A stretch of DNA of 64,000 nt, taken from Corallium rubrum. Its lineage: Eukaryota; Cnidaria; Anthozoa; Scleralcyonacea; Coralliidae. Every line of letters begins with the position of its first letter. The first letter of the stretch is position 1. Below are positions 12,621 through 61,392 of the stretch, piece after piece. The stretch lies in the NCBI GenBank assembly GCA_964035015.1, contig OZ036013.1:6156501-6220500 (forward strand), given 5' to 3'. Both the position numbers and the translations under genes were made by a program. Below the pieces are notes generated by a model. That model was not told the DNA's origin, did not search any database, and saw only the letters and a program-made list of their open reading frames with translations.

Positions 12621-12720
12621 ATGCCTGAAGAAGCGAAATTACATATTGGAAATCTTGCGTTCGATGTAAGAGAAGACGAACTTCGAGATAAGTTTGAGAA
12701 GTATGGCGTCGTAGAAGAAG
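12621..12720 (+). CDS. Gene A exon 1 (RNP2 half of RRM)
   Basis: 100 nt, phase 1 at the end. It reads [16 protein letters not shown] onward to KYGVVEE. The donor GTGAGT starts at 12721. Confidence 0.92.
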
Positions 12721-15700: not shown

Positions 15701-18700
15701 CATGAATAAAATCTCATGATAGTTTATTTTAATTGTATTTTTCAATAAACCTTTTGCACGATGACGTGAGATGGCATTGGGTGACTACAACTACCAGAAT
15801 GCTTTGCCAGTATTCTAGGGTTTCGGCTAAAAGGGATGACTGGAATGGACCTGTCCAGTCCTTTTGCAGCTTTTCCAAAATACATGTATGTTGTCAAATT
15901 AATGTTTTTCTAAAAAGCTACTGTAGGGGGTAAACCAGATTTCTGATTAGGGTTCGGGTTTATGTTGTGGTTAGGGTGTCCAAAATATTTCTAAAATCTT
16001 GAGACTCACTGAAACTTGATGACAAATTTGGAAATAAAAAACAAATTCAATGACATATTTTGAAAAAGCGACAAAAAGGACTGGATGGGTCCTTTTTGAG
16101 TATCCCTTTTAACTGAAACCCTAGAATACTGGCAAAGCATTCTTGTAGTTGTAGTCCCTCACACCATCTCACGTCATCGTGCAAATGGCTTATTGAAACT
16201 GCTCAATTGAAATGCCATATAAACAACTTGTTTATCATGATGTTTCATCAGGGGAATCCAAATACTAGAAAACAATAAAACCACTTAGCCTTCTGGAGCT
16301 CCTCATGATGAAACATTTAAACTCGTTGTTGATATATAATGTGGATGCTTTATCCCAAGTTATCCTGGGTTTGCCAAATTTAACTTCAATCTCTCTTTGG
16401 CAAATTGGTGAGCAAGATCTTAAACTGTCGATGTTGTTATTTCTCCCTTTTTTAGTTACCATAATCAAAGATAGAGATACTGGCAGACATAGGGGCTATG
16501 CTTTTGTGATGTTTGAGAAGGTTGAGGATTCAAAAGTTGCCATGGATGCACTTCATAAAGCAGTAAGTTGTTGTGCTTCTTTTTCTCAAGTCAGATACAG
16601 TGTACAATGTTTTACAACACACAGCTGTAAAAGTTTTATTAAATCTCCCCTAAAATAAGCCCCCCTCTCTATACATTAAGCCTCACTCTTTAGATCTCCA
16701 ATTTTGAAATAAGCTCCCCCCTCTTAAGCTGCTTTCACTTTCCAAAAACCAAAATAGTTTGTGATTGAAGTGTAATATACATGCAGGGTTTTATCCAAGC
16801 ACTTTTCTAGGTCCAGTAACCAGAAAGTTATAAAGATTTAAAGATGTCCAAATGAAGAAAAAATATGGCACAAACAAATTGCTGATTCAGCGCAAATTGT
16901 GACGTCATGAATGGTGAATGTTTAAATGAACTAGCTCAGTTACTATGTGTCAGAATCAAATGAACCTTTGTACATGTATGGTGCAAGATGAAACACAGTT
17001 GATAATATTGCCAATTTTGTTGTCAAGGTAACACTGTTGTACCCAGGCCCCTTGCACGGATTTTATTATAAACCACCTCTGTCCTAAGGATAAAATAATA
17101 TCAGACAAGTACTTGTCATACCTATGCATGCCTAAAATACGTTTATACTATAAGAATTTGAAAATTATTCCCACAGAGATAAATACATGTTGTTTTATAA
17201 AATCCTTGCAAGGGGCCTGGGTACAACAGTGCTACCTTGACAACAAAATTGGTGATATCAACTGTGTTTCATCTTGCACTATATGTGTGCAAAGATTCAT
17301 TTGATTCTGACACATAGTAACTGAGCTATAGTTCATTTAAAAACATTCACCAAATTAACATGCAAACCACATGACGTCACAATTTGTGCTGAATCAGCAA
17401 TTTGTGCCATATTTTTTCTTCATTTTGACATCTTTAAATCTTTATAACTCTGGAACTATAAAAGATATCAAGGAACGGTAAACTGCATATTGTCCTACTT
17501 TTTGATGCTCTTTGAAATGAAGCAATAAAAAATTTAATTTCATAGGCTCTTTAAAGTGTCAATATCATGATTGGGGATTTTACGTATTTAGGATATTTGG
17601 AACCTTCAGAGAAGATTTGTAATATATCTTCCTTTTCTAAAATTTCATCTTCACGAACTTGGAAGGTGACGTCAAAGCAGGCATTTGTCTATACAAAAAC
17701 CACTTTACAGATTCCTGCACAATCTCGTTCCCAGAGCCTGCGATCCTTTTGGTCATTACCAAATACCAAGGAACGGAGACTCTGGGAAACTCCGATGAAA
17801 AAGTCCCCAAATCTGGGTCTTTGGTCCCAGTCCTCTGGTTCCCAGCTCCTCATAATTTGTAACTGTCATGTTCATGATCGTTCGTTAGTCCGAAGACCTG
17901 GGAAATATTTGTTTACCGATGAATAAAATCAATATGTTTTACAAGGCTCTCGACAAAGCATTTCGTGTAAGAATGGCCATTCTTTGCTTTTCTTCTAATC
18001 CTTGACCGGACGATTTGAGCCGTAGGTTTCATTTGTCCGCGTCGGCCGTGATCGGCTCGGCTCAGCTGCTCAGGTAAGGAATTGAATTGTACTTTCTGTT
18101 AAGAATTTTGGCTAAATTATATCGACCTTGCATTCTCTAATGTTATTTTTAAAGTTCTGAGACTAAACTGTGAAGAAATACGAGACGAGTCAGACGACAG
18201 ATGTTTGTTTGGCGACAAAGCGACAATAATAATAGTTTTAACTTGTAAATTATCGGGATTTTTACTGTTTTGAATTATTTCATGTGTTCAATTGTATATT
18301 GGGTTTGTCGTGTATAATTATGTGTTACAGAACGTTGATAAATCAATAAACAAGTTAGCAACGTGCACAGAATTTTGATTTTCACTGTTATTTATTGCTG
18401 GGTCGAGATTGATTGAACTAACCAATTAGATGCCGAGTTTCATCGGAGTTGCCCAGAGCCTCCGTTCCTTGGTAATGACCAAAAGGATCGCAGGCTCTGG
18501 GAACGAGATTGATTCCTGCATAGACATCACTTCCGTCAAGTTTAACAGCGAAAAAGTCCATTGAAGATGAAATTTTGGAAAAGGAAGATATCAGGCCTTA
18601 AAAAATGTTTCAAAAACCCCGTAGGATGTTGTACGCTTTGTACAAGCTAAGATTTTGAAATTTCGAAATTTTATACGCGAAAAAAAATTCACATTTCGAC

Positions 18701-21700: not shown

Positions 21701-22952
21701 TGAAATTGTATAAGCCTCTTGAGGGTTCAAAAGAGGTTTTACAGTGTAATGTAATGTAATGTAATGTTAATCAGATTACTGCAAATTTAATTGAGGAACT
21801 GTAAAATTTTTCTAGGTTTCAAATAAAATTTCAATATTAAAATTACAATATTACAAAATAAATTTCGATTACATTTCTGATAAATGTAATCGAGAAGGCA
21901 ATTGTTCACCCTGCGAGCAAGGCCTTATAAATATTCGCCGCTGTCAAATCTTTGTCGAACATGCGTGACAGATGTTGCTTAGGAGTGGGTGGGTAGTGGG
22001 CGTGTCGTAATTAAAGTCGGGCATTCATTGGTTATATCTTTCTCGGTGTTGACCAATCAACATAGAGTATGCGTTCCATAGCAACGGCGAACCAAGGGAC
22101 TCAGATTTGGCAAGTGCTTTTCCGCTAAACTCAATGCGTACGATCTAAAAACCGGTTTGACGAGAGAAAACGAGATTGACTAGATCAAACGTTTGGACTG
22201 CGGCGACTTAAAAGATTCGACTCGATTTCGGCAGAGCCTTATTTTACTGCGAGTTTTTTTAAGGTTCTGCTCGCAGGATTGCTCTTCTGGCATTTTCATT
22301 AGGAAAAATAATGTTAACCCTTCTTGTTGTTTGTTTACACTCTTTACGTTTCTCTCTGACGAAGGGCTTTCCCCTGAAACGTTAGAAACTTCGTTCAATA
22401 TTTTCGGCAGTGCTCTAACCTTACTATATTTCGATTTGTATTTCAACACTGCCTACGCAGTACACTACTTTTATTTCACTGCTTGGAAAATTTCAAATAA
22501 GCAGCTCTTCAGATAAATGTAATCGAGAAGGCTCTTCTGGCATTTTCAATAGGAAAAATAATGTTAACCCTTCTTGTTGTTTCTTACAGGACTTTGGTGG
22601 CAGGTATATCGAGGTCGAAAAAGCCAAGCCCCGTAGATACGATGGTGGCGGTAGAAACAGTGGTGGTGGTGGCAATCGATATACAAGTGATGGTCGTTAT
22701 GACAACAGAAATGATGGTTGGAATGGTCGCAGAAACTATGATAACAGGGGGAGGGATTACCAACGTGATAGCAGATACAGTGATCGTGGTGGTGGTGGCT
22801 ATGACAGGGATCAAGGCCGAGGTGATAGATATGGTGGTGGTGGTGGATATGATAGGGATCGAGGTGATAGATATGGTGGCGGCGGTGGTGGATATAATAG
22901 AGATCGAGGTGACAGATATGGTGGTGGCGGTGGTGGATATGGTAGGCGTTAG
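12621..22952 (+). CDS. RRM gene A: CIRBP/RBM3-like glycine-rich RNA-binding protein
   Basis: Exons 12621-12720, 16456-16562 and 22590-22952 join in frame to 570 nt (189 aa plus stop). One RRM occupies residues 7-80, with RNP2 LHIGNL at 7-12 and RNP1 RGYAFVMF at 46-53. The tail of about 110 residues is rich in Gly, Arg, Tyr and Asp, with repeated [15 protein letters not shown] blocks. This is the layout of cold-inducible RNA-binding proteins and plant GRPs: single-stranded RNA binding, mRNA stability and translation, nucleus/cytoplasm shuttling (family knowledge). The start is MPEEAK at 12621: paralogue B starts identically with an in-frame stop just upstream. An in-frame ATG at 12519 would add 34 unrelated residues and overlap the promoter motif. 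The stop is followed after 5 nt by a GTGAGT donor, so the 3' UTR is spliced. Confidence 0.88.
13018..13056. repeat. G-rich tract in intron 1
   Basis: Runs of G broken by single T, following (GT)n. Able to form G-quadruplex on the + strand. Confidence 0.85.
13607..14614. mobile_element. Tigger/pogo-like non-autonomous element with TA duplication
   Basis: CAGTAGAACCTGAGTTTTAC at the left is mirrored by TTGTAAAAGCCCGGTTCTACTG at the right, with TA on both sides (13605-13606, 14615-14616). It is about 1.0 kb. The interior repeats ACGACCACCTG-type motifs. No transposase was seen. Confidence 0.75.
14615..15740. other. Intron 1 sequence without recognised genes
   Basis: It begins with a fragment of a dispersed repeat (TTTACTCTGGCTAATGCCAG at about 14626) seen at several other places in the window. 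The rest is AT-rich with no ORF or structure I could assign. The duplicated block starts at 15313. Confidence 0.6.
15741..16198. mobile_element. Foldback MITE in gene A intron 1
   Basis: TTCAATAAACCTTTTGCACG, then ATGACGTGAGATGG, mirrored by CCATCTCACGTCATCGTGCA, then AATGGCTTATTGAA. A second inner pair contains CAGTATTCTAGGGTTTC. Duplicated at 26486-26943. Confidence 0.75.
16456..16562 (+). CDS. Gene A exon 2 (RNP1 half of RRM)
   Basis: 107 nt. The acceptor TTTTTTAG ends at 16455 and the donor GTAAGT starts at 16563. It reads [19 protein letters not shown], then EKVEDSKVAMDALHKA, and ends on a codon boundary. Confidence 0.92.
16810..17460. mobile_element. Foldback MITE in gene A intron 2
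   Basis: Arms of about 230 bp: TTATAAAGATTTAAAGATGT at 16828 is mirrored at about 17430-17449, and GTACCCAGGCCCCTTGCACG is mirrored by the complement near 17205. Copy 2 counterpart: 27555-28205. Confidence 0.75.
17549..19455. mobile_element. Composite foldback element with nested foldbacks
   Basis: The outer ends share CATGATTGGGGATTTTAC followed by TATTTAGGATATTTG, inverted at 19388-19440. Inside are an inverted pair built on CAGAGCCTGCGATCCTTTTG (about 17735) with its complement at about 18475-18505, and a third foldback at 18844-19281. Copy 2: 28294-30199. Confidence 0.65.
18844..19281. mobile_element. Inner foldback with AACCGCAAAC arms
   Basis: TAGAGAGTTTTAGATTGAAG, then TTAACCGCAAACTGC, is inverted at the right as GATTTGCGGTTA... 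ending AAAAGTCTCTA. Copy 2: 29589-30025. Confidence 0.6.
19743..20053 (+). pseudogene. THAP-domain fragment, left arm
   Basis: Starts ATGGTTGTCATGAAAAG (MVVMK) and runs through a THAP finger with an in-frame stop (TAGAGTAAAATG context near 19808) and a frame change near 19890. It ends near GCAATGAAAAG. The inverted twin lies in the right arm. Confidence 0.6.
21251..21561 (-). pseudogene. THAP-domain fragment, right arm
   Basis: Inverted twin of 19743-20053. This arm keeps the first half open longer (CRNDTRCPHLIESNENND, then VTFYHFPGPIKRS), but a shift at about 21410 joins it to a wrong frame before the SYVCSLHF half. Confidence 0.6.
21898..22279. mobile_element. Foldback insertion in gene A intron 2 with CCTGCGAGCA ends
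   Basis: CACCCTGCGAGCAAGGCC at the left is mirrored by TTCTGCTCGCAGG at the right. It interrupts a segment duplicated at 22513-22583. An AAACCGGTTT (about 22149-22158) lies inside, but no start codon or exon follows it. Confidence 0.5.
22333..22512 (+). mobile_element. 180-bp insert with hammerhead-like core
   Basis: Flanked by two copies of a 73-bp direct repeat (split at the left by the 21898-22279 element, intact at 22513-22583). It contains CTGACGA (22356-22362), a short GGG/CCC helix and GAAAC (22376-22380), the core order of a hammerhead ribozyme. Similar CTGACGAAGGGC...GAAACG ends are known from Penelope-like elements. Stem I is not evident. Confidence 0.4.
22590..22952 (+). CDS. Gene A exon 3 (RRM beta-4 and Gly/Arg/Tyr tail)
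   Basis: 363 nt. The acceptor TTCTTACAG ends at 22589. It starts DFGGRYIEVEKAKPRR (RRM C-terminal strand), continues into low-complexity RGG/YGG repeats and ends GGYGRR then TAG. Other-frame readings of this GGT-rich exon are artefacts. Confidence 0.9.
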   Translation, partial: DFGGRYIEVEKAKPRRYDGGGRNSGGGGNRYTSDGRYDNRNDGWNGRRNYDNRGRDYQRDSRYSDRGGGGYDRDQGRGDRYGGGGGYDRDRGDRYGGGGGGYNRDRGDRYGGGGGGYGRR

Positions 22953-23337
22953 TATAGGTGAGTGGTGTAACAGTTAATTTCTTATGCTACAATCATTAGC
23001 ATTAAGTTCTCAGTTTGCAAGTCGAGCTTTGAATACTCCCTTCCAATTCCCAAGTGAAATCAGCGTTAACTTTTGAAAAACACCTTTCAAATTGGGCAAG
23101 ATTTACCACTCACTAGTTCCAGTGCTATCTACAATGTACTCATTGAAGTTTATGGAAAAATCCATTGCCACTTCAAAATCGCACTGGAGTGAAAGTTTCC
23201 CCAAGAAAGTTATCACCTGGGAGTAGTTTCAATATACAATTGTCCCAAATGGTTTGATGATCAAGCGTTAATGTTTCTGAATATGTATATATTGTTCTCA
23301 CTTTAATCATCGTTTGTTCTTGTTCAGTCCTCTAAAG
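22953..23337 (+). other. Gene A 3' UTR intron directly after the stop
   Basis: TAG is followed by TATAG and a GTGAGT donor at 22958; the acceptor TTCTTGTTCAG ends at 23337. The intron's second half is strongly conserved in gene B (42160-42376). Copy 2 intron: 33701-34070. Confidence 0.7.
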
Positions 23338-23620
23338 GCCTTCGACGTCCAACCAATTGCTTCAAACTGTACCATGTAACTGCACATTCAACTACCGAGT
23401 ACACTGTAGCCAAATGATCACCATTGACCTTTGTTTTTCCACGTCCGTATCTCGCGTATACAAGATTGGACAACTACCCCCGTTGCCGACGTCCAGGCAT
23501 GCATCCAAGCCAAGACCTACACCGAAGATGTAATATTATATAGTTACCTCTTGTATACAGCTATAGTTATGTTCTGAACCAATGTTTCATTAAAAGACAA
23601 TGCTACATTTTTTACACGTG
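23338..23620 (+). other. Gene A 3' UTR exon and poly(A) signal
   Basis: CCTCTAAAGGCCTTCGACGT onward is nearly identical to 42377-42640 after gene B. ATTAAA at 23589-23594 with GT-rich sequence after it is the best poly(A) signal. Copy 2: 34071-34360. Confidence 0.6.
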
Positions 23621-25856: not shown

Positions 25857-26056
25857 NNNNNNNNNNNNNNNNNNNNNNNNNNNNNNNNNNNNNNNNNNNN
25901 NNNNNNNNNNNNNNNNNNNNNNNNNNNNNNNNNNNNNNNNNNNNNNNNNNNNNNNNNNNNNNNNNNNNNNNNNNNNNNNNNNNNNNNNNNNNNNNNNNNN
26001 NNNNNNNNNNNNNNNNNNNNNNNNNNNNNNNNNNNNNNNNNNNNNNNNNNNNNNNN
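25857..26056. other. Assembly gap (200 N)
   Basis: Exactly 200 Ns, a typical placeholder length. Flanked by the end of copy 1 and the start of copy 2 of the duplicated block. Confidence 1.
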
Positions 26057-27200
26057 ATTACAAAATGTTTCTAGTAACTCAAGTAAATTCTTTTTTTAAA
26101 TTTTCTGGAATTAATATTTAGAGCCCTTGATAAAAATATTAAATTACTACCAAGAAAATCATTCAGAAAGTAAAGTAAAGAATATTGCTTAATTGCAATA
26201 TATTTTTTACAATGTATGACTGCATGTGTAATGTAGTCTTACTGTATATATCTCAAACTCATTAAATTAATAATTCATGAATAATCAGCCAATTACAATA
26301 GTTTATTCAATCACCTGATTGAAGTTGGATACTCCAGTGAAACCCAAGATATTAGATGAAAACCAGTGTTCATCTAATTCTTAAGATCTCGATTTAATAT
26401 CTATGCAAAATAAACAAGTTGATGTGAGTAAATTTTACACGCACTCATGAATAAAATCTCATGATAGTTTATTTTAATTGTATTTTTCAATAAACCTTTT
26501 GCACGATGACGTGAGATGGCATTGGGTGACTACAACTACCAGAATGCTTTGCCAGTATTCTAGGGTTTCGGCTAAAAGGGATGACTGGAATGGACCTGTC
26601 CAGTCCTTTTGCAGCTTTTCCAAAATACATGTATGTTGTCAAATTAATGTTTTTCTAAAAAGCTACTGTAGGGGGTAAACCAGATTTCTGATTAGGGTTC
26701 GGGTTTATGTTGTGGTTAGGGTGTCCAAAATATTTCTAAAATCTTGAGACTCACTGAAACTTGATGACAAATTTGGAAATAAAAAACAAATTCAATGACA
26801 TATTTTGAAAAAGCGACAAAAAGGACTGGATGGGTCCTTTTTGAGTATCCCTTTTAACTGAAACCCTAGAATACTGGCAAAGCATTCTTGTAGTTGTAGT
26901 CCCTCACACCATCTCACGTCATCGTGCAAATGGCTTATTGAAACTGCTCAATTGAAATGCCATATAAACAACTTGTTTATCATGATGTTTCATCAGGGGA
27001 ATCCAAATACTAGAAAACAATAAAACCACTTAGCCTTCTGGAGCTCCTCATGATGAAACATTTAAACTCGTTGTTGATATATAATGTGGATGCTTTATCC
27101 CAAGTTATCCTGGGTTTGCCAAATTTAACTTCAATCTCTCTTTGGCAAATTGGTGAGCAAGATCTTAAACTGCCGATGTTGTTATTTCTCCCTTTTTTAG

Positions 27201-27307
27201 TTACCATAATCAAAGATAGAGATACTGGCAGACATAGGGGCTATGCTTTTGTGATGTTTGAGAAGGTTGAGGATTCAAAAGTTGCCATGGATGCACTTCA
27301 TAAAGCA
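27201..27307 (+). CDS. Gene A exon 2, second copy
   Basis: Acceptor TTTTTTAG and donor GTAAGT intact. RNP1 RGYAFVMF. Confidence 0.85.
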
Positions 27308-30300
27308 GTAAGTTGTTGTGCTTCTTTTTCTCAAGTCAGATACAGTGTACAATGTTTTACAACACACAGCTGTAAAAGTTTTATTAAATCTCCCCTCAAA
27401 TAAGCCCCCCTCTCTATACATTAAGCCTCACTCTTTAGATCTCCAATTTTGAAATAAGCTCCCCCCTCTTAAGCTGCTTTCACTTTCCAAAAACCAAAAT
27501 AGTTTGTGATTGAAGTGTAATATACATGCAGGGTTTTATCCAAGCACTTTTCTAGGTCCAGTAACCAGAAAGTTATAAAGATTTAAAGATGTCCAAATGA
27601 AGAAAAATATGGCACAAACAAATTGCTGATTCAGCGCAAATTGTGACGTCATGAATGGTGAATGTTCAAATGAACTACAGTTACTATGTGTCAGAATCAA
27701 ATGAACCTTTGCACATGTATGGTGCAAGATGAAACACAGTTGATAATATCACCAATTTTGTTGTCAAGGTAACACTGTTGTACCCAGGCCCCTTGCACGG
27801 ATTTTATATATAAACCACCTCTGTCCTGATAAGGATAAAATAATATCAGACAAGTACTTCTCATACCTATGCATGCCTAAAATACGTTTATACTATAATA
27901 ATTTGAAAATTATTCCCACAGAGATAAATACATGTTGTTTTATAAAATCCTTGCAAGGGGCCTGGGTACAACAGTGCTACCTTGACAACAAAATTGGTGA
28001 TATCAACTGTGTTTCATCTTGCACTATATGTGTGCAAAGATTCATTTGATTCTGACACATAGTAACTGAGCTATAGTTCATTTAAAAACATTCACCAAAT
28101 TAACATGCAAACCACATGACGTCACAATTTGTGCTGAATCAGCAATTTGTGCCATATTTTTTCTTCATTTTGACATCTTTAAATCTTTATAACTCTGGAA
28201 CTATAAAAGATATCAAGGAACGGTAAACTGCATATTGTCCTACTTTTTGATGCTCTTTGAAATGAAGCAATAAAAAATTTAATTTCATAGGCTCTTTAAA
28301 GTGTCAATATCATGATTGGGGATTTTACGTATTTAGGATATTTGGAACCTTCAGAGAAGATTTGTAATATATCTTCCTTTTCTAAAATTTCATCTTCACG
28401 AACTTGGAAGGTGACGTCAAAGCAGGCATTTGTCTATACAAAAACCACTTTACAGATTCCTGCACAATCTCGTTCCCAGAGCCTGCGATCCTTTTGGTCA
28501 TTACCAAATACCAAGGAACGGAGACTCTGGGAAACTCCGATGAAAAAGTCCCCAAATCTGGGTCTTTGGTCCCAGTCCTCTGGTTCCCAGCTCCTCATAA
28601 TTTGTAACTGTCATGTTCATGATCGTTCGTTAGTCCGAAGACCTGGGAAATATTTGTTTACCGATGAATAAAATCAATATGTTTTACAAGGCTCTCGACA
28701 AAGCATTTCGTGTAAGAATGGCCATTCTTTGCTTTTCTTCTAATCCTTGACCGGACGATTTGAGCCGTAGGTTTCATTTGTCCGCGTCGGCCGTGATCGG
28801 CTCGGCTCAGCTGCTCAGGTAAGGAATTGAATTGTACTTTCTGTTAAGAATTTTGGCTAAATTATATCGACCTTGCATTCTCTAATGTTATTTTTAAAGT
28901 TCTGAGACTAAACTGTGAAGAAATACGAGACGAGTCAGACGACAGATGTTTGTTTGGCGACAAAGCGACAATAATAATAGTTTTAACTTGTAAATTATCG
29001 GGATTTTTACTGTTTTGAATTATTTCATGTGTTCAATTGTATATTGGGTTTGTCGTGTATAATTATGTGTTACAGAACGTTGATAAATCAATAAACAAGT
29101 TAGCAACGTGCACAGAATTTTGATTTTCACTGTTATTTATTGCTGGGTCGAGATTGATTGAACTAACCAATTAGATGCCGAGTTTCATCGGAGTTGCCCA
29201 GAGCCTCCGTTCCTTGGTAATGACCAAAAGGATCGCAGGCTCTGGGAACGAGATTGATTCCTGCATAGACATCACTTCCGTCAAGTTTAACAGCGAAAAA
29301 GTCCATTGAAGATGAAATTTTGGAAAAGGAAGATATCAGGCCTTAAAAAATGTTTCAAAAACCCCGTAGGATGTTGTACGCTTTGTACAAGCTAAGATTT
29401 TGAAATTTCGAAATTTTATACGCGAAAAAAAATTCACATTTCGACCCAGTCCCTTTATTCGTCTAAAAATGCTGGAATTAAATGACGGAAATATATAAAC
29501 ATTAAAGATGGCGGTCTACGAAGGGGCGAATGTTTGGTTGTTCTTGTCTGAAGGAAACACGATGAAGCAGCTATATTCAGTGAGTCAATAGAGAGTTTTA
29601 GATTGAAGTTCTTTTTTTAACCGCAAACTGCAAACCGCGGTTAGACGTTTGCGGTTAGAAGTTTGACGTTAACATGTCAAAGAGCATTTAGATTGGCGTT
29701 CGTGTTTTCACTTGTTGCGAACTGCCATGTTTGGTTTTCAATCGTTCATACATATTCACCAAAAATTGACATGAGCTTCAGTGTTCAATAAAAAAACGTC
29801 GTGATTCAAGAACAACAGACATGTAAGAGTATAAATTTACACCCCAAACGTGGGTTGGTTGAGTAAAAGTTACATAAAAACCTTGCCGTAATTCAGTTAC
29901 CTCAAGAAGCCGTTATAGCAGTACAAACGTGAACCGCAAACGTGTAATCTGACCGCTGGACGTTGGTCACGTGGTTTCTTGCGGTTTGCGGTTATCAAGA
30001 AAAAACGTCAAACTAAAAGTCTCTAGTGTACGACGTCGTACGTTTTTTAGATACTTGGCGTGCGTCAAGCTATTTTCGGTGAGCTGTCGTGCGTTCGTAC
30101 GCCTATTTTTTAAGCCTTGTGATATATTAGAAATCTTCTCAGAATGTTGCAAATATCCTAAATATGTAAAATCCCCAACCATGATGTAGCTTTTTAAGAT
30201 ATCAACAATTCTATTTGACTAGCATAATGCACTGTACATGTTTCTAAATAAGCATTTCAGTAATATAGTTATATAGTATAATACTTCAATAATCCCCACC

Positions 30301-33300
30301 CTCCTATTAATCCTCTTATCTCTATTGAGCCCCCTCATTATTAATACCCCATCTCTATTAAGCCCCTCACTCTATTCACCAGTTTCACTCTAGAAACCAC
30401 GTGTGTAGTCACGTGGTCAAATATGTAAACAAAGCCGAAAGTTCGTACTACCGTACGAACAGGCACGGTATTAAAGCAAATGCAATATGGTTGTCATGAA
30501 AAGATTTTCTTGGGGAACGTGCAGAAATGATACGCGGTATCCTCATCTAATAGAGTAAAATGAAAACAATGCTCCTGTGACATTTTATCATTTCCCTGGC
30601 CCTAAGAGATCGGCGGACGGCGGGGAGACGAAAGAAGTTGATAATAGCGTGCCATCGCGATCGTGGGGACAAATTTGTGTGTACAAAGGACAGCTACGTC
30701 TGTAGTTTACACTTCGTCGGCGGCAATGGACCAACTACAAAAAAACAAACAGATCCTATTATATCTGCTGTGGCAAGCAATGAAAAGGTATTGGGCGTAT
30801 TGCATATTGACGTCGTATGTCCGTTTCATAAATTCTTCAAAGAAAACGACGCAGTCCTGTGAAAAGGCTTGGGAACTTTCTTCCGAAGAGACGACGTGCT
30901 TTCGAGAAAGAAGTCGCCCAGTCGCGAATTGGCCTCCATGCAGCGCAGTGAATAAGCAGAGATCAGAAGAAAAGTTGCAAATGGCTGAAAGTATGCTGAA
31001 TCTGTCTGAGAGCAATCCTACTATATGGGTTCATCGAAGTCAGCTATTGTCAGCGAGATCAAGATGAGATTGTCAAAATGGACATGCAACTGCAAGAAGC
31101 TGGCACAACTATTAAAACTAGCAGTACACATGTTTGCGCTTTATTTCTTTTACAGTTCTATAAACTGCTCGCAACAATTAGTAAATTAATAAAGGCAGCC
31201 AATTTCATTTTTTATTTTGACTGATTCAGAACTTATGGACCTTTCTCCCTATCCTGACAAAATCCTAAAGTGCACCAAACGACTGCGGAGACATTTATTT
31301 ATGGCTGCTTGAAGACGAAAAATACACAGCTCACTACACAGGTTATCGAAATTTTATCTTCTTTATTCTTTAATAACCGCTTTAATATCACTTTAGTTTA
31401 TTAAATCATCGAGGAGTACTGGCTAGCCAGTTAAGTTGATATTAAAGGTTATTAAAGAGGATAAAATTTCGATAACCTGTGTAGTGAGCTGTGTATTTCT
31501 CGTCTTCAAGCAATACCATAAATAAATGTGTCTCCGCAGTCGTTTGGTGCACTTGAGGATTTTGTCAGGATAGGGAGATAGGTCCACAAGTTCTATATCA
31601 GTATAAATATAAAAAATGAAATTGGCTGCCTTTATTAATTTATTAATTGTTACGAGCAGTCTATAGAACTGTAAAAGAAATAAAGCGCAAACATGTGTAC
31701 TGCTAGTAGTTGTGCCAGCTTCTTGCATGTCCATTTTGACAATCTCATCTTGATCTCGCTGACAATAGCTGACTTCGATGAACCCATATCGTCGGATCTG
31801 CTCTCAGACAGATTCAGCATACTTTCAGCCAGTTGCAACTCTTCTTCTGATCTCTGCTTATTCACTGCGCTGCATGGAGGCCAATTCGCGACTAGGCGAC
31901 TTCTTTCTCGAAAGCACGTCGTCTCTTCGGAAGAAAGTTCCCAAGCCTTTTCACAGGACTGCGTCGTTTTCTTTGAAGAATTTATGAAACGGACATACGA
32001 CGTCAATATGCAATACGCCCAATACCTTTTCATTGCTTGCCACAGCAGATATAATAGGATCTGTTTGTTTTTTTGTAGTTGGTCCATTGCCGCCGACAAA
32101 GTGTAAACTACAGACGTAGCTGTCCTTTGCCCCACGATGCCACGCTATTTATTATCCACTTCTTTCGTCTCCCCGCCGATCTCTTTATAGGGCCAGGGAA
32201 ATGATAAAATGTCACAGGATCATTGTTTTCATTTGACTCTATCAGATGAGGACACCGCGTATCATTTCTGCACGTTCCCCACGAAAATCTTTTCATGACA
32301 ACCATATTGCATTTGCTTTAATAGCCGTGCCTGTTCGTACGGTAGTACGAACTTTCGGCTTTGTTTACATATTTGACCACGTGACTACACACGTGGTTTC
32401 TAGAGTGAAACTGGTGAATTAAGCTCCCCCTTCCTCTGGGTCTTGAAATTGTATAAGCCTCTTGAGGGTTCAAAAGAGGTTTTACAGTGTAATGTAATGT
32501 AATGTAATGTTAATCAGATTACTGCATTGAGGAACTGTAAAATTTTTCTAGGTTTCAAATAAAATTTCAATATTAAAATTACAATATTACAAAATAAATT
32601 TCGATTACATTTCTGATAAATGTAATCGAGAAGGCAATTGTTCACCCTGCGAGCAAAGCCTTATAAATATTCGCCGCTGTCAAATCTTTGTCGAACATGC
32701 GTGACAGATGTTGCTTAGGAGTGGGTGGGTAGTGGGCGTGTCGTAATTAAAGTCGGGCATTCATTGGTTATATCTTTCTCAGTGTTGACCAATCAACATA
32801 GAGTATGCGTTCCATAGCAACGGCGAACCAAGGGACTCAGATTTGGCAAGTGCTTTTCCGCTAAACTCAGTGCGTACGATCTAAAAACCGGTTTGACGAG
32901 AGAAAACGAGATTGACTAGATCAAACGTTTGGACTGCGGCGACTTAAAAGATTCGACTCGATTTCGGCAGAGCCTTATTTTACTGCGAGTATTTTTAAGG
33001 TTCTGCTCGCAGGATGGCTCTTCTGGCATTTTCAATAGGAAAAATAATGTTAACCCTTCTTGTTGTTTGTTTACACTCTTTACGTTTCTCTCTGACGAAG
33101 GGCTTTCCCCTGAAACGTTAGAAACTTCGTTCAATATTTTCGGCAGTGCTCTAACCTTACTATATTTCGATTTGTATTTCAACACTGCCTACGCAGTACA
33201 CTACTTTTATTTCACTGCCTGGAAAATTTCAAATACACTGTAAGCAGCTCTTCAGATAAATGTAATCGAGAAGGCTCTTCTGGCATTTTCAATAGGAAAA

Positions 33301-33695
33301 ATAATGTTAACCCTTCTTGTTGTTTCTTACAGGACTTTGGTGGCAGGTATATCGAGGTCGAAAAAGCCAAGCCCCGTAGATACGATGGTGGCGGTAGAAA
33401 CAGTGGTGGTGGTGGCAATCGATATACAAGTGATGGTCGTTATGACAACAGAAATGATGGTTGGAATGGTCGCAGAAACTATGATAACAGGGGGAGGGAT
33501 TACCAACGTGATAGCAGATACAGTGATCGTGGTGGTGGTGGCTATGACAGGGATCAAGGCCGAGGTGATAGATATGGTGGTGGTGGTGGATATGATAGGG
33601 ATCGAGGTGATAGATATGGTGGTGGCGGTGGTGGATATAATAGAGATCGAGGTGACAGATATGGTGGTGGCGGTGGTGGATATGGTAGGCGTTAG
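27201..33695 (+). CDS. Second copy of gene A exons 2-3 (no exon 1)
   Basis: Exons 27201-27307 (107 nt) and 33333-33695 (363 nt) encode the same residues as gene A; the differences seen, such as GGC/GGT in a glycine codon, are silent. There is no exon 1 because the copy begins inside intron 1. If the block is an unmerged overlap, this is the other allele of gene A and should be joined to exon 1 at 12621-12720. If the duplication is real, it is a promoterless partial gene. Confidence 0.65.
30375..32418. mobile_element. Foldback element with inverted THAP fragments, copy 2
   Basis: Counterpart of 19633-21675 with the same breaks in both THAP arms. Confidence 0.75.
33092..33115 (+). ncRNA. Hammerhead-like core, copy 2
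   Basis: CTGACGA, short helix, GAAA, as at 22356-22379. Activity is doubtful because the pairing of stem I is not visible. Confidence 0.25.
33333..33695 (+). CDS. Gene A exon 3, second copy
   Basis: Acceptor TTCTTACAG ends at 33332. Same Gly/Arg/Tyr tail. TAG at 33693-33695, then a GTGAGT donor at 33701. Confidence 0.85.
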   Translation, partial: DFGGRYIEVEKAKPRRYDGGGRNSGGGGNRYTSDGRYDNRNDGWNGRRNYDNRGRDYQRDSRYSDRGGGGYDRDQGRGDRYGGGGGYDRDRGDRYGGGGGGYNRDRGDRYGGGGGGYGRR

Positions 33696-34299
33696 TATAG
33701 GTGAGTGGTGTAACAGTTAATTTCTTATGCTACAATCATTAGCATTAAGTTCTCAGTTTGCAAGTCGAGCTTTGAATACTCCCTTCCAATTCCCAAGTGA
33801 AATCAGCGTTAACTTTTGAAAAACACCTTTCAAATTGGGCAAGATTTACCACTCATTAGTTCCAGTGCTATCTACAATGTACTCATTGAAGTTTATGGAA
33901 AAATCCATTGCCACTTCAAAATCGCACTGGAGTGAAAGTTTCCCCAAGAAAGTTGTCACCTGGGAGTAGTTTCAATATACAATTGTCCCAAATGGTTTGA
34001 TGATCAAGCGTTAATGTTTCTGAATATGTATATATTGTTCTCACTTTAATCATCGTTTGTTCTTGTTCAGTCCTCTAAAGGCCTTCGACGTCCAACCAAT
34101 TGCTTCAAACTGTACCATGTAACTGCACATTCAACTACCGAGTACACTGTCGCCAAATGATCACCATTGACCTTTGTTTTTCCACGTCCGTATCTCGCGT
34201 ATACAAGATTGGACAACTACCCCCGTTGCCGACGTCCAGGCATGCATCCAAGCCAAGACCTACACCGAAGATGTAATATTATATAGTTACCTCTTGTAT

Positions 34300-37484: not shown

Positions 37485-37573
37485 TTGAAAACCGGTTTTG
37501 ACCCGAGTCGTCAAGCTTTCGAGTTTGCATGTGACCTAACTGCTGTGACGAGATTGTGGTTTGAAAATTGAAA
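37485..37573 (+). promoter_or_regulatory. Gene B proximal promoter/5' UTR with AACCGGTT
   Basis: AACCGGTT at 37490-37497 in TTGAAAACCGGTTTTGAC, 84 bp before the ATG. The same extended context occurs in genes A and C. Confidence 0.55.
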
Positions 37574-37673
37574 ATGCCTGAAGAAGCAAAATTACACATT
37601 GGAAATCTCTCGTACGATGCAACCGAACGCGATCTTCGACATCAGTTTGAGAAGTATGGCGTCGTCGAAGAAG
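37574..37673 (+). CDS. Gene B exon 1
   Basis: [20 protein letters not shown] onward to KYGVVEE; donor GTAGGC at 37674 (weaker than in A and C). Confidence 0.92.
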
Positions 37674-40600: not shown

Positions 40601-41275
40601 GATGCCATGCGTGCACTTTATGATAAAGTAAGTCATAGCTTACTTTTAATGTTCTGATACAGACTATATGTACAGTGCTATCATTTAGAAAATTACTGGC
40701 TTGCTAAGGTGTGCACCGCATGGTTCCAGCTATATAGTACAGTCTGTAGAACTTGAGTTCAAATTGGGTCATTCCAGAAAAGATCCATACCTCCCCCACA
40801 GAGGAAATTTGTGCCATCTGGGGAGGGGAGGGGGATAAATCTACTTCTGATAATAGTAAAGTGTACTAGGATGTCTGAAGGGGGGAGGGGGTCAACTTCA
40901 CATTTCCTCTGTGGGGGAGGTGTGGATGTTTTCTGGAATGACCCATTTCACACAGCTCTTGTAAACTTCTTTTTCGTTTATATTTTACAGGAGATATGTG
41001 GCAGATGTATAAAGGTGGAAAAAGCCAATCCTCTTAGAAGGGATGGTGGTGGTGGGAGCTACAATGGTGGTGGACGAAGTTATGGTGGTGGTGGTGGTGG
41101 ACGAAGTTATGGTGGTGGTGGACGAAGTTATGGTGGCAGAAGTGATAGTTATAATGATGATCGCAGAAGCTATGGGGGAAGGGATTATCAACGTAGTGGA
41201 GGTGGTTATGACAGAGATCAGGGAAGGAGAGGTGATCGATATGGTGGTGGTGGTCGATCGTATGAACGTTACTAG
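37574..41275 (+). CDS. RRM gene B: CIRBP/RBM3-like glycine-rich RNA-binding protein
   Basis: Exons 37574-37673 (100 nt), 40521-40627 (107 nt) and 40991-41275 (285 nt) give 163 aa plus stop. RNP2 is LHIGNL, RNP1 RGYAFVMF (residues 46-53). The tail has [10 protein letters not shown] repeats, then [20 protein letters not shown], ending RSYERY. It starts [12 protein letters not shown] exactly like gene A, with an in-frame TGA 9 bp upstream of the ATG confirming the start. Exon lengths and phases match genes A and C, so the three are tandem paralogues; A and B are closest. RNA-binding role by family. The stop codon touches a GTGAGT donor (intron 41276-42376). Intron 1 carries a foldback MITE; intron 2 carries a 179-bp MITE 46 bp before the acceptor. 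Confidence 0.9.
38087..38644. mobile_element. Foldback MITE in gene B intron 1
   Basis: CCGGTGTCACGGTCTCAGTG, then ATCCCCCAGTCTGAG, mirrored by CTCAGACTGGGGGATC, then GCTGAGACCGTGACACCGG. The inner arms (GAAGTATCGAGTTTAGT region near 38395, complement near 38325) extend the stem. Confidence 0.8.
38645..39185. repeat. G-tract and element-like segment with 17-bp tandem repeat
   Basis: A G-tract follows the MITE, then GTTGGCAGAGGGGGGCAAAA with a loose inverse near 39160-39178 (GGCCCTGCCAACC). At about 38930-39075 AATGTAATGTCTTACAAT-like units repeat in tandem. Confidence 0.5.
39186..40440. other. Gene B intron 1 distal part, dispersed repeats
   Basis: A foldback with GGGTCATTCCAGAAAATATC (39376) and inverted GAAATCTCTGGAAAT motifs, then two adjacent copies of the dispersed repeat (AGTAAAATTGTCTCGCATTA at about 40235 and AGTAAAACTGTCTGACATTA at about 40357). 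No coding content. Confidence 0.5.
40521..40627 (+). CDS. Gene B exon 2
   Basis: Acceptor CTTTATTTAG; reads [19 protein letters not shown], then [16 protein letters not shown]; donor GTAAGT. Confidence 0.92.
40766..40944. mobile_element. 179-bp MITE just upstream of gene B exon 3
   Basis: GGGTCATTCCAGAAAAGATC and its inverse GATGTTTTCTGGAATGACCC, with CCCCCACAGAGGAAA also inverted. Flanked by AAATT/ATTT. Its right end is 46 bp from exon 3. Confidence 0.75.
40991..41275 (+). CDS. Gene B exon 3 and stop
   Basis: Acceptor [27 protein letters not shown] closes the RRM, followed by the Gly/Ser/Tyr/Arg tail. TAG at 41273-41275 abuts the donor GTGAGT. Confidence 0.92.
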   Translation, partial: EICGRCIKVEKANPLRRDGGGGSYNGGGRSYGGGGGGRSYGGGGRSYGGRSDSYNDDRRSYGGRDYQRSGGGYDRDQGRRGDRYGGGGRSYERY

Positions 41276-42376
41276 GTGAGTTGCCATTACTGATATATCA
41301 GTAACCACTGATCTGTCTCTGATAAATGAATTCAAAATTGATTGGATTAATTGAACTGCATGTGTGGCTGAGCCTACACTGTTATAAAATATAGCAGAAT
41401 AAGGTCAGCAGTGAGTGGTTGCTTAGTACCATGAGAGAAAGGACCCATATTTCTACTATCTCTCATTCTTTGTATTAAACAGACTCTGTAGTCCAGTTAT
41501 ATAATCTGATAATTATGGGTTAGTGTTAAATACATGTACTTGATTTTCTTATGCTATACCGTTACATGTGTACTAGCATATTCGGTCAGCTTTATAAACT
41601 TTTGAAAAATGTATTTCAATTAGGCAAGATTGATTGACCATTCACTAGAGCTGCTCCCATCAGTTCATTTTGTCAACAATCGATTAATATTGATTAATCA
41701 TATTGATTAAATATGTCATGAATTAAATACGACATGTCCATGGTGGTTTGTCCACTCAAAGGAAGGGGGGTGCTTTTATAAAGTTTTTACTAAATTTGTT
41801 GGGGATTGCCTCCCCTGTTGTCACCCAACAATTCAGTCATTCAACAATTCAGTTTTAAATTACTGTTTAATCACGGTTATAGATTGCGCACTTTCTCGCG
41901 CTCTCACAGTTGTTTAGTTTACACTTGACACTCCTAAATGATACTGCGATACTATTGGCTAATCAGTTTATGAATAATTGGTTTAACTAAGGCGTGTTTG
42001 TAATCAGTCATTACTTTCTGTTTAACAAAACACGATTAAATAATTCTGGCATCATGCTGTGCAGGGTTGTTGTAGATGATCCGATTATTGTTAAGTATAA
42101 TCGATTGTGGAAAAAGCCGAAAAAATAATCGATTAAATGGGAGCAGCTCTACCATTCACCAGTAATTCCAGTGCTATCGACCATGTACTCATTGAAGTTT
42201 ATGGAAAAATCAAGTGTCACTTCAAAATTGAACCAGAGTGAAAGTTTCTCCAAGAAAGTTGTCACCTGGGAGTAGTTTCAATATACAGTTGCCCCAAATG
42301 GTTTGATGATCAAGCGTTAATGTTTCTGAATATGTATATATTGTTCTCACTGTAATCATCGTTTGTTCTTGTTCAG
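41276..42376 (+). other. Gene B 3' UTR intron
   Basis: The donor GTGAGT starts immediately after TAG; the acceptor TTCTTGTTCAG ends at 42376. The last 215 bp match the gene A 3' UTR intron. Enlarged by the hAT-like MITE. Confidence 0.7.
41646..42151. mobile_element. hAT-like MITE with 8-bp target duplication
   Basis: TAGAGCTGCTCCCAT at the left and ATGGGAGCAGCTCTA at the right, flanked by CCATTCAC on both sides (41638-41645, 42152-42159). The matching gene A intron has a single ACCACTCAC-type site, i.e. the empty state. Related copy at 63393-63755. Confidence 0.85.
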
Positions 42377-42660
42377 CCCTCTAAAGGCCTTCGACGTCCA
42401 ACCAATTGCTTCAAACTGTACCATGTAACTGCACATTCAACTACCGAATACACTGTAGCCAAATGATCACCATTGACCTTTGTTTTTCCACGTTCCACGT
42501 TCATCCGTCGCGTATACAACATTGGACAACTACCCCCGTTGGCGACGTCCACCCAAGCAAAAGCTACACCGAAGTTTTAATATAGTCGCATCTTATATAT
42601 ACAACTATAGTTATGTTCTGAACCAATGTTTCATTAAAAGACAATGCTGATTTTTAATAT
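42377..42660 (+). other. Gene B 3' UTR exon and poly(A) signal
   Basis: CCTCTAAAGGCCTTCGACGT, then CAAACTGTACCATGTAACTG, conserved with gene A. ATTAAA at 42633-42638 is followed by a GT-rich stretch. Confidence 0.6.
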
Positions 42661-54262: not shown

Positions 54263-54264
54263 TA

Positions 54265-54266
<2 letters not shown>

Positions 54267-54341
<75 letters not shown>
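54267..54341. repeat. (ATT)n microsatellite
   Basis: About 75 bp of pure TTA units at the 5' truncation point of the LINE. Confidence 0.95.
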
Positions 54342-55960: not shown

Positions 55961-55966
55961 GGGTAA

Positions 55967-56097: not shown

Positions 56098-56197
56098 ATG
56101 GGAGAAGAGGGCAAGTTATACGTGGGGCAACTTGCTTACAGTATAGATGATGATGCTCTTCGAGAGCCATTCGAGGCGTACGGTAAAGTAGTAGATG
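56098..56197 (+). CDS. Gene C exon 1
   Basis: MGEEGKLYVGQLAYSIDDDA onward to YGKVVD; donor GTAAGT at 56198. Confidence 0.92.
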
Positions 56198-59100: not shown

Positions 59101-61392
59101 CTATAATAGTAATACATTACTGTAGTGTACATTACATTTACATAAGAAATACAGACATACAGTGCATTATATAATTATATTATTTAATTATAGACTATTG
59201 TTTACAATTGTTTAGTGATGGGTACGTTTTGTTTTATGACAGGCACAATCTGATTGATGCTGGGCAAAAAAAATTATATCCAGGCTTGTCTACACTATTT
59301 CACTCAACTTTTTTCTAATTATTATATGTAAAAAATAGGGTTGGGTGTTGTCAGTTGTGAAACTGGAACCAAACAAAAAATTTTTAGGCCTAGAGGACCT
59401 GGATTATTTGGAACCTCTAACTGCAAATTAGACAAATTGTTTCTCATCTCTAAATCTATTTTCTTTTCAGTTAAAGTAATTATTGACAGAGACACTGGTA
59501 AATCAAGAGGGTTTGGCTTTGTGACATTTGAAGATCCTGCCGATGCAGAGAAAGCCATTGAAGCTCTAAATGACACTGTAAGTTTTGATTCACTTGTGAT
59601 GTGCAATCTTTATCCCTCTTAGATCATGATCACCTCAGTTTTCTTCGATGTACTGTGGTTGTTTATTTATAATAATTACTCCCAACCATGCATAAATCAA
59701 GTTAATACCCTGGGCTAATATATATTAGTCCGGGGCAATTAACTTGATTTATGTGTGGTTCTTTATGCAGGCCTATCACTGAAGAAAAAAAACAGGTGTG
59801 CTGAGGTTAGCACGCCGCACGCCTCGGCTGACCTGGGTGTGCAATGACGTGCGATGGTGTACAACGCTTTCACAACACAATAAATAGTTTGCAAAACATA
59901 ATAATACATGTTTTATTTGGACTGATTTTTAGAAAACAATGAATCATTTTTGGTTGTCTGACCAAAATACATGACGACCAAAATGCTGTAAAAGGTGGTG
60001 AACTTCCAAAATCATTAAACGAAATTATTTCACTGCATTTTGATTTTTCATAACAAACACTACCTACGCAGTACTACACTTTTTTACATGATCTGAGAAT
60101 TAGCTCACTGTAATCAAACATCACCAACAGGATCGCCATCAACATCATCGTCAGATTGTCACTGAGATCAGTGCTACTCTGGTTGTTGTAGTCGTTGCTG
60201 CTCAGATCATCGGTAATTTTGAACATTACATAGTGTGGAGAACAGTTTTAGTTCTTTTTTAGAGAAAAAATAGCCTGGACAACAAGCTGAATAAAGTGAT
60301 TTAAAAAATCACTAGCATGCACTGTTCATTTCGCACCATCTACTGTAGTTATTGTTTTCAGATTATTCCTGTTTTGTATTTTTGGTGCACTACCATGCGT
60401 GTGAACATGTGACGGCTACTGATTTGTAAATTCAATTTCTTTGAGCCGTTTTCTTCTCACGACGGAGCTCATTACACATTGTTATGTATGAACCAATGGA
60501 TGCGACTGCAGGACAAACAACCTGACAAGAGTAAACAGATACACCATAATCTGAGTAAAAAATCCTGAATTTATGATCTTTTAGGCGTGCGACCAAACAC
60601 ATGCCTCGTGTTCTTCAGGCGTGTGCCAAGGCATGCCCGTGCAATCGCATGCCTCTCAGTGATAGGCCTGCTTTATGTGATCTTGAACTATGGTACGTAA
60701 GTTATTTATTTCATTAAAGTGCATATGAAACAAAACGGTCCATAAGTTATTTACCTCAGCCCTTTGTGAATAAACTATCTCCTTAACCCTTTCATGCCCA
60801 CCAGTGCTGTTTGGCACTTTTTATGTTTTACTCTGTCTAACGCCAGATGATTACAGTACTTGTGAAGGGAAGACCTGACAAGGTTCAGTAACTAAGCTAT
60901 ACTTAATATTAATTGTCAATCAAATGAACTATTTTGTTAAACCAATTCTGTCCTGAGCTGGCCAAAAATGGCTCTTTTTATTGTTTTACCCTAACTCCAG
61001 ACAATTTTACTCATCAAAGGGAGAAACACCACCTAGGCAGCAATGGGTTAATAAACAAGACAATTCAGTAGATGAAACTTGTTATAACATTAATGGTGTG
61101 TAATTGTTACATTTCTTTTCAGGAGCTTGACAATAGGACCATCTCAGTAAACAAAGCAAAACCTCGCAGTGGTGGTGGTGGTGGTGGTGGTGGATATCGT
61201 CGTGGTGGTGGTGGTGGAGGATATGGTGGTGGTGGTGGATATGGTGGTGGTGGTGGATATAGTGGTGGTGGTGGTGCGTATGGTGGTGGTGGTGGATATG
61301 GTGGTGGTGGTGGATATGGTGGTGGTGGTGGATATGATGGTGGTGGTGGTGGCAGATATGGTGGTGGTCAAAGCCGAGGTGGTCGTTATTAG
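56098..61392 (+). CDS. RRM gene C: glycine-rich RNA-binding protein
   Basis: Exons 56098-56197 (100 nt), 59471-59577 (107 nt) and 61123-61392 (270 nt) encode 158 aa plus stop. RNP2 is LYVGQL, RNP1 RGFGFVTF (residues 46-53, closer to the vertebrate CIRBP/RBM3 consensus than A and B). The tail is an almost pure array of GGGGGYGGG units ending QSRGGRY. Exon lengths and phases equal those of A and B, so common descent is clear, but the sequence is more diverged and the 3' UTR is not shared. An upstream in-frame ATG at 56059 would add 13 residues; 56098 (MGEEGKLYVG) matches the paralogues. TAG abuts a GTAAGT donor, implying a 3' UTR intron here too, but its acceptor was not identified. Confidence 0.9.
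56788..57117. mobile_element. Foldback MITE in gene C intron 1
   Basis: GCCATGCCTATTTATCCTTG, then TTAAAATCATGGTGAAA, is inverted at about 57012-57050. The arms extend outward to GACCATTTCAAGGTTATTG. Confidence 0.75.
57118..58800. other. Gene C intron 1, no recognised feature
   Basis: AT-rich, with many degenerate short repeats of GTTCAAAGAAGTTGCACTAC type (57870-58100). No credible exon seen. Confidence 0.5.
58859..59125 (+). pseudogene. Possible ZNF862/hAT-type N-terminal fragment
   Basis: A 88-codon frame, MSKKITAFFMSADTNS... with STVVKWINKDLAKTNASVWL, then KQEDNGKG. The S-K-K-x-x-x-F-F start and a W-x(n)-WL segment before an expected zinc finger resemble ZNF862-like proteins derived from hAT transposases. 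It ends before a complete finger. The assignment is tentative. Confidence 0.3.
59471..59577 (+). CDS. Gene C exon 2
   Basis: Acceptor TTCTTTTCAG; KVIIDRDTGKSRGFGFVTF, then EDPADAEKAIEALNDT; donor GTAAGT. Confidence 0.95.
59685..59760 (+). repeat. 76-bp hairpin in gene C intron 2
   Basis: CATAAATCAAGTTAATACCC, inverted ending AACTTGATTTATG, loop TAT at the centre. The outer stem extends to AACCATG/TGTGGTT. Adjacent to the element at 59768. Confidence 0.7.
59768..60670. mobile_element. hAT-like non-autonomous element
   Basis: CAGGCCTATCACTGA at the left and TCAGTGATAGGCCTG at the right, flanked by CTTTATG (59761-59767, 60671-60677). The interior carries GGCGTGC/GCACGCC motifs. No transposase. 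Confidence 0.75.
60780..61055. repeat. Dispersed repeat, two copies in gene C intron 2
   Basis: TTTACTCTGTCTAACGCCAG, then ATGATT, and TTTTACCCTAACTCCAGACA, then ATTTTACTCATCAAAG, each ending near AATGGGTTA-type sequence. Further copies: about 14626, 40235, 40357, 48310, 61468, 61573. Confidence 0.7.
61123..61392 (+). CDS. Gene C exon 3 and stop
   Basis: Acceptor TTCTTTTCAG; ELDNRTISVNKAKPRSGGGG closes the RRM, then a GGY-rich tail. His-rich and Val-rich readings in other frames are shadows of the GGT repeat. Confidence 0.92.
   Translation, partial: ELDNRTISVNKAKPRSGGGGGGGGYRRGGGGGGYGGGGGYGGGGGYSGGGGAYGGGGGYGGGGGYGGGGGYDGGGGGRYGGGQSRGGRY

What the first reader, a model, noticed from the sequence alone, without database searches (positions are those of the whole stretch)
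12621..61392. Cluster of three RRM/glycine-rich paralogues with invariant exon design
Genes A, B and C have coding exons of exactly 100 and 107 nt, the same phases, the split at the same RRM codon, and all three glycine tails begin in exon 3. Each also has a splice donor at or within 5 nt of the stop codon. Tails diverge strongly ([13 protein letters not shown] in A, GGRSYGGG in B, pure GGGGGY in C), suggesting one RNA-binding module with differing low-complexity tails.
Basis: partly seen in the sequence, partly recalled or inferred. Interest (0 to 1): 0.7.

Follow-up and report, generated by a model that had tools for sequence, protein, structure and literature searches.

The report
Three CIRBP-like RNA-binding protein genes
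This stretch carries three neighbouring genes for small RNA-binding proteins of the cold-inducible/glycine-rich kind that share one exon plan, most simply by common descent; two of them also share an unusually well preserved non-coding 3' end that may control how their messages are spliced.

Summary
Genes A, B and C each have coding exons of 100 and 107 nt, intron phases 1 and 0, an RRM split at the same codon, a glycine-rich tail in exon 3, and a strong splice donor 5, 0 and 0 nt after the stop. They are single-RRM, glycine-tailed proteins of the CIRBP/RBM3/GRP class. A and B are close (58/83 in the RRM); C is further off (40/83, 42/83) and a tree neither joins nor separates it. Shared descent explains the exon plan. 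First, 15313-25856 recurs at 26057-36628 (49 substitutions in 10529 aligned bases) with 200 N exactly at the join: probably unmerged haplotypes, not a fourth gene. Second, A and B share a predicted 3'UTR exon and its upstream intron half, 266/280 identical over 23140-23420, above their coding exons (86%, 82%), while introns 1 and 2 no longer align. Mouse CIRBP has temperature-switched, NMD-coupled 3' exons in that part of the gene (PMC12795684, passage), so an ancient regulated 3' end is open and testable. Otherwise ordinary.

The parts
12621..12720 (+). gene A coding exon 1 (100 nt)
   Evidence: ATG..AAG|GTGAGT; RRM residues 1-33 plus first base of codon 34
16456..16562 (+). gene A coding exon 2 (107 nt)
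   Evidence: TTTTTTAG|..GCA|GTAAGT
22590..22957 (+). gene A exon 3: end of RRM, glycine-rich tail, stop TAG at 22950-22952, predicted donor after 22957
   Evidence: donor 10.92 bits
22958..23327 (+). gene A intron 3, predicted, in the 3'UTR; the half 23112-23327 is 93% identical to gene B
   Evidence: 201/216 aligned columns, 3 gap columns
23328..23613 (+). gene A predicted terminal 3'UTR exon 4 (end approximate); acceptor TTGTTCAG| shared with B; ATTAAA at 23589
   Evidence: 250/280 aligned columns over 23328-23620 identical to B, 20 gap columns
25857..26056 (.). 200-N assembly gap exactly at the junction of the two copies
26057..36628 (+). second copy of 15313-25856 (49 substitutions in 10529 aligned, 12 indels); probably the other haplotype
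27201..27307 (+). second copy of gene A exon 2 (identical)
33333..33695 (+). second copy of gene A exon 3, coding part (one synonymous change)
34071..34356 (+). second copy of predicted gene A exon 4
   Evidence: one difference over 293 nt compared
37574..37673 (+). gene B coding exon 1 (100 nt)
   Evidence: AAG|GTAGGC
40521..40627 (+). gene B coding exon 2 (107 nt)
40991..41275 (+). gene B exon 3 with glycine-rich tail; TAG is the last codon, predicted donor directly after it
   Evidence: donor 10.92 bits
41276..42376 (+). gene B intron 3, predicted, in the 3'UTR; holds a probable insertion with 15-bp perfect inverted ends at 41646-42151
   Evidence: the scan also lists an acceptor-like site at 41910, inside the insertion
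42377..42655 (+). gene B predicted terminal 3'UTR exon 4 (end approximate); ATTAAA at 42633
56098..56197 (+). gene C coding exon 1 (100 nt)
   Evidence: ATG|GTAAGT
59471..59577 (+). gene C coding exon 2 (107 nt)
61123..61392 (+). gene C exon 3, tail 71% glycine; TAG is the last codon, predicted donor directly after it
   Evidence: donor 10.55 bits; the three acceptor-like sites found after it (62629, 63030, 63674) lie in repeat elements

Best explanation
A head-to-tail cluster of three paralogous genes for small single-RRM, glycine-rich RNA-binding proteins of the CIRBP/RBM3/GRP class. The common exon plan (100 + 107 + tail exon + 3'UTR intron starting at or just after the stop) was inherited from the copied gene. 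Shown: exon borders at consensus sites, RRM homology, tail divergence, stop-abutting donors, and in A and B a shared 3' terminal acceptor/exon far better preserved than introns 1 and 2. Inferred: each RRM binds RNA while the arginine/glycine/tyrosine tail adds weak RNA and protein contacts that tune condensation and affinity. Also inferred: with the last junction 0-5 nt after the stop, normal mRNA escapes nonsense-mediated decay, so choice of the terminal splice could set mRNA level, as reported for mouse CIRBP. The second set of A exons is most likely an unmerged second haplotype.
For: RRM_1 in all three at 74-86 bits against a cut-off of 20.7. Best single-RRM PDB chain: CIRBP for B (84 bits) and for A (72); for C glycine-rich RBPs 4c7q and 2mpu (75, 74), then mS86 (73), RBM3 (72), CIRBP (70). 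Identical phases and lengths. Donors after stops at 10.5-10.9 bits; 13 of 3771 + strand GT sites reach 10.5, these and the repeat copy included. A/B identity 266/280 over 23140-23420 against 41-56% for the 300-nt ends of introns 1 and 2 and 300 nt upstream. A conserved polyadenylation block and a diverged exon-4 middle suggest site-wise constraint. Copy 2 begins and copy 1 ends exactly at the N gap, with one synonymous change in 470 coding nt.
Against: No transcript data. Kinship of C to A/B is unresolved, A+B group with nucleolin RRM3 rather than CIRBP in the tree (87/76), and a clade of A, B, CIRBP, RBM3, RBMX and RBMY has no support (p-AU 0.42). For A and B, multi-RRM chains such as PUF60 or hnRNP A1 have higher total scores than CIRBP, since domains add up. 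The 3' block is absent after C within the window. No strong conserved internal donor and no marked RNA structure in the block, so no switch mechanism is visible in the sequence.
Confidence: 0.82

Rival explanations
1. The 10.5-kb repeat is a true recent tandem duplication, so A has a second, partial copy (exons 2-4 without exon 1) that could give duplicated or alternative exons.
For: Tandemly duplicated genes are common in corals (PMC10236652, passages). A true tandem repeat whose junction was unresolved would give the same geometry around a gap.
Against: Both copies abut a round 200-N gap. 0.47% difference, unevenly spread (0 to 15 substitutions per kb), is within allelic range: that paper's passages report heterozygosity of 2.3 and 1.14% in two corals, allelic duplications in the first assemblies, and Ks very distinct between tandem and allelic pairs. 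The coding parts differ by one synonymous base. That the window is from a coral or other cnidarian is itself untested.
Confidence: 0.18
2. The strong A/B similarity at the 3' end reflects gene conversion or a later local copying event, not constraint.
For: A and B are neighbours; similarity continues, weaker (290/369 aligned columns, 79%), into downstream satellite-like repeats.
Against: The profile has two peaks (acceptor block; ATTAAA block) with a diverged, indel-bearing middle. A single conversion tract would be more evenly similar.
Confidence: 0.3
3. C belongs to a separate ancient GRP lineage and lies beside A/B for another reason; the shared exon plan is older than the cluster.
For: C's nearest rows in the tree are bacterial RRMs (64% to L004 over 76 columns), not A/B, and C lacks the shared 3' block in the window.
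Against: Weak tree: 21 of 35 inner branches open, bootstrap not settled; A+B+C as one clade not rejected (p-AU 0.41). Same orientation, same phases, same stop-donor layout.
Confidence: 0.3

Closest known systems
CIRBP / RBM3 (vertebrate cold-inducible RNA-binding proteins)
   Same: One N-terminal RRM and an RG/GY-rich tail. For A and B the best-scoring single-RRM PDB chain is CIRBP. By recall, same RRM split and 107-nt exon. Mouse CIRBP has temperature-regulated 3' exons (PMC12795684, passage).
   Different: Intron placed at or just after the stop rather than before it (recall for CIRBP). Cold induction and NMD switching untested here. RNP1 of A/B is RGYAFVMF.
Plant class IVa glycine-rich RNA-binding proteins (GRP7 type)
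   Same: Best single-RRM PDB matches for C are 4c7q (75 bits) and 2mpu (74 bits), plant proteins by recall; glycine-rich tails.
   Different: In five plants, 76.92% of branch I genes have one intron and 90.48% of branch II genes three (PMC11021534, passages). Intron positions were not compared.
RBMX / hnRNP G
   Same: Single RRM of related sequence (51-67 bits).
   Different: Tails here are short and RG/GY-rich; RBMX has a longer, different C-terminal region (recall).
Bacterial RRM proteins
   Same: RRM 62 and 64% identical to C (L003, L004).
   Different: No introns (recall); their tails were not examined.

Membership tests
CIRBP/RBM3/GRP class (single RRM, glycine-rich tail) | One canonical RRM with RNP1 and RNP2 | tested here: met
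   One RRM_1 stretch each in A, B, C; RNP2 LHIGNL/LYVGQL and RNP1 [16 protein letters not shown] read, motif names recalled
CIRBP/RBM3/GRP class (single RRM, glycine-rich tail) | C-terminal glycine/arginine/tyrosine-rich tail following the RRM directly | tested here: met
   Tails 35, 38 and 71% G; 12-14% Y; 23, 20 and 8% R for A, B, C
CIRBP (orthology) | RRM groups with CIRBP/RBM3 in a tree | tested here: inconclusive
   A, B, CIRBP, RBM3, RBMX, RBMY as one clade: p-AU 0.42, not in the best tree; A+B sit with nucleolin RRM3 there, 87/76 (38 rows)
CIRBP (orthology) | Same coding-intron positions as vertebrate CIRBP | not tested
   Recalled only; no vertebrate gene sequence was looked at
CIRBP (function) | Temperature-responsive expression through 3' alternative exons and NMD | not testable with these tools
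   Needs RNA-seq at two temperatures; only a shared, well preserved 3' acceptor/exon was seen

The most novel reading that the evidence does not exclude
The stop-abutting 3'UTR intron and the strongly preserved terminal acceptor of A and B are the invertebrate counterpart of the temperature-switched 3' exons of mammalian CIRBP. On this reading, splicing-coupled control of cold-inducible RNA-binding proteins predates the cnidarian-bilaterian split. An exon-3-skipped form (E2 joined to E4, in frame, 29 residues, 28 of 29 alike in A and B) would drop the end of the RRM and the whole tail.
Probability: 0.12. Interest if true: 0.6.

Novelty: new member of a known kind. Interest (0 to 1): 0.33.

Why it matters
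It gives a compact, testable case for how small RNA-binding protein genes duplicate while keeping the RRM and gene plan and letting the low-complexity tail change. The preserved 3' block gives a defined place to ask whether temperature-linked splicing control of CIRBP-type genes is ancient. It also warns that automatic annotation here may list an extra A gene or duplicated A exons.

Tried and rejected
Invariant exon lengths as something beyond descent: rejected as unnecessary. Second A copy as a mutually exclusive exon set: possible but unlikely, because the gap lies exactly at the join. snoRNA or structured RNA in the preserved intron half: Rfam gave 0 hits at gathering threshold in the window, and folding z-scores were -1.68 (A; 11 of 200 shuffles as good) and +0.29 (B). 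Cassette poison exon inside the block: in 23115-23620 the one candidate donor above 2 bits in both genes is 23376 at 4.6 bits, weaker than the nine predicted donors of the models (6.3-12.3 bits). Exon 4 as normal coding sequence: the frame-0 reading is open for 29 codons only, which by my arithmetic happens by chance about one time in four, and a 7-nt indel separates A and B later in the exon. RNA G-quadruplex autoregulation through the tail exon: exon 3 holds 5, 4 and 9 two-layer motifs in A, B and C, and human RGG motifs are often encoded by rG4s (PMC11789052, abstract); kept as an untested possibility. Literature on cnidarian glycine-rich RRM genes: one search gave 0 papers; one search gave one, on temperature-dependent sex determination (listing seen only); one search matched 13,175 papers because two general terms sufficed, and the 15 listed hold neither 'cold-inducible RNA-binding' nor 'glycine-rich RNA-binding', so it says little. 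I saw no description of this cluster, but did not search for it well enough to claim there is none.

Full report
Check of the finding. Gene models were rebuilt from the sequence. Each gene has a 100-nt first coding exon and a 107-nt second coding exon; intron 1 is in phase 1 within codon 34 and intron 2 in phase 0 after codon 69. Exon 3 codes the last part of the RRM and the glycine-rich tail and differs in length (363, 285, 270 nt). Proteins are 189, 163 and 158 aa. The six donors and six acceptors of the coding introns are GT and AG. The stop is followed after 5 (A), 0 (B) and 0 nt (C) by GTGAGT, GTGAGT and GTAAGT. In B and C the stop codon TAG itself forms the last three exon bases and supplies the AG of the donor consensus; in A the stop lies slightly earlier. 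Donor scores after the stops are 10.55-10.92 bits; 13 of 3771 GT sites on the + strand score 10.5 or more, these sites and the repeat copy included. The site weights were recalled, not fitted to this genome.

What the proteins are. Pfam finds one RRM_1 stretch in A, B and C at 74, 79 and 86 bits. RRM identities are A-B 58/83, A-C 40/83 and B-C 42/83; NG86 dN and dS are 0.17 and 0.35 for A-B, dS is 1.98 for A-C and undefined for B-C. Among PDB chains holding one RRM, CIRBP is best for B (84 bits) and A (72 bits); for C it is 4c7q and 2mpu (75 and 74; glycine-rich plant proteins by recall), then mS86 (73), RBM3 (72) and CIRBP (70). Chains with several RRMs rank higher because domain scores add. 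A tree of 38 RRMs (3 window, 16 from PDB chains, 19 from fetched prokaryote/viral loci) left 21 of 35 inner branches open, with the bootstrap not settled. A+B are sisters (95/61) and group with nucleolin RRM3, a long branch (87/76). C's nearest rows are bacterial RRMs. A+B+C as one clade is not rejected (p-AU 0.41), nor is A+B with CIRBP, RBM3, RBMX and RBMY (p-AU 0.42); neither is in the best tree. Eighty-one columns are too few to settle this, so class membership rests on domain layout, not on the tree.

Bases 15313-25856 recur as 26057-36628 with 49 substitutions in 10529 aligned bases (0 to 15 per kb) and 12 indels, the largest 31 nt. The second copy starts at the first base after a 200-N gap and the first copy ends at the last base before it. 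It contains A exons 2, 3 and predicted exon 4; no second exon 1 was found (tblastn). The two exon sets give the same protein; the coding parts differ by one synonymous base. This is what two unmerged haplotype contigs with overlapping ends look like. Passages of PMC10236652 report allelic duplications in first coral assemblies and heterozygosity of 2.3 and 1.14% in two species. A true tandem duplication would have the same geometry; only reads can decide.

Downstream of the stops, A and B share a segment whose acceptor (CGTTTGTTCTTGTTCAG|) is identical and which ends in an identical ATTAAA block. Identity is 201/216 over the intron half 23112-23327, 250/280 aligned columns over 23328-23620, and 266/280 over 23140-23420. 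By comparison exons 1 and 2 have 86.0% and 82.2%; the 300-nt ends of introns 1 and 2 and 300 nt upstream give 41-56% in forced alignments, and the first half of intron 3 76/143. blastn finds no A/B match inside introns 1 and 2 beyond the exon edges except one short reverse-strand piece that also matches near C. Against 72% as a rough neutral guess from dS, 266/280 has a binomial p of 4e-23; against the coding identity, 1e-8. The stretch was picked after seeing the profile, so these values are too favourable. Two peaks with a diverged, indel-bearing middle speak for constrained sites rather than a single conversion tract, but conversion is not excluded, and weaker similarity (79%) runs on into downstream repeats. 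B's intron 3 also carries a probable insertion with 15-bp perfect inverted ends at 41646-42151, part of which recurs at 63393-63757 after C. C has no such block in the 2.6 kb left in the window; its three acceptor-like sites there lie in repeat elements, so its terminal exon, if any, may lie beyond the window.

How it most likely works. Shown by sequence: RRM modules, tails, splice-site consensus. Inferred: RRM binding to RNA with tail-tuned weak contacts, as in CIRBP and plant GRPs. Inferred from the EJC rule (established knowledge): a last junction 0-5 nt past the stop does not trigger NMD, so the normal spliced message is stable. A passage of PMC12795684 says that in mice lower body temperature gives CIRBP exon 7a and the full-length transcript, higher temperature exon 7b/8 and NMD; RBM3 has a heat-induced poison exon in intron 3 (PMC10165353, passages). 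The preserved terminal acceptor of A and B lies, like the CIRBP switch, at the 3' end of the gene, so a regulated 3' splice is plausible. But no competing exon or strong internal donor was found, the block has no marked RNA fold, and no expression data are at hand. Skipping exon 3 would join phase-0 ends and add 29 residues read from exon 4 (28 of 29 alike in A and B); an open run of that length is not rare by chance.

Verdict. A real, correctly described cluster of an ordinary gene class. The exon design is most simply inheritance. Source species, synteny and further genomic copies could not be checked: the own-genome search did not complete.

Noticed in passing
15313-25856 and 26057-36628, gap 25857-26056: 10.5-kb near-identical repeat meeting exactly at a 200-N gap; probable unmerged haplotypes at contig ends, which would inflate gene A in annotation.
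   Followed up: partly
23112-23620 and 42160-42680: Non-coding block shared by A and B, in its best part better preserved than their coding exons, around a predicted terminal 3'UTR acceptor.
   Followed up: partly
41646-42151 and 63393-63757: Probable insertion with 15-bp perfect terminal inverted repeats (TAGAGCTGCTCCCAT) in B's 3'UTR intron; related sequence downstream of C.
   Followed up: partly
19630-21676 (and copy at 30374-32419): Long foldback element in A intron 2, with arms up to 99-100% complementary; two of its ORFs were tried and gave no Pfam match.
   Followed up: partly
62241-63370: Foldback element with 247-nt arms, 94% complementary, after gene C; one ORF tried, no Pfam match.
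   Followed up: partly
603-9926: ORFs with PAN, calcium-binding EGF and fibrinogen C-terminal domains on the + strand; 2825-5780 is an array of similar units, of which one (5100-5285) was tested and is an EGF domain.
   Followed up: partly
53487-54266, - strand: Reverse transcriptase pieces (RVT_1) in different frames, a probable broken retroelement between B and C.
   Followed up: no
11431-12457: About 1 kb of short tandem repeats (four-base units judged from the translations) ending 164 bp before the A start codon.
   Followed up: no
12539-12571 and 37468-37500: 33-nt block (84.8% identical) 50-82 nt upstream of the A start codon and 74-106 nt upstream of B's, containing TTGAAAACCGGTT; possible shared leader or promoter element.
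   Followed up: no
L003, L004, L001: Two bacterial RRMs (62 and 64%) and one from a viral-collection contig (55%) match C better than A or B do (48 and 51%).
   Followed up: partly
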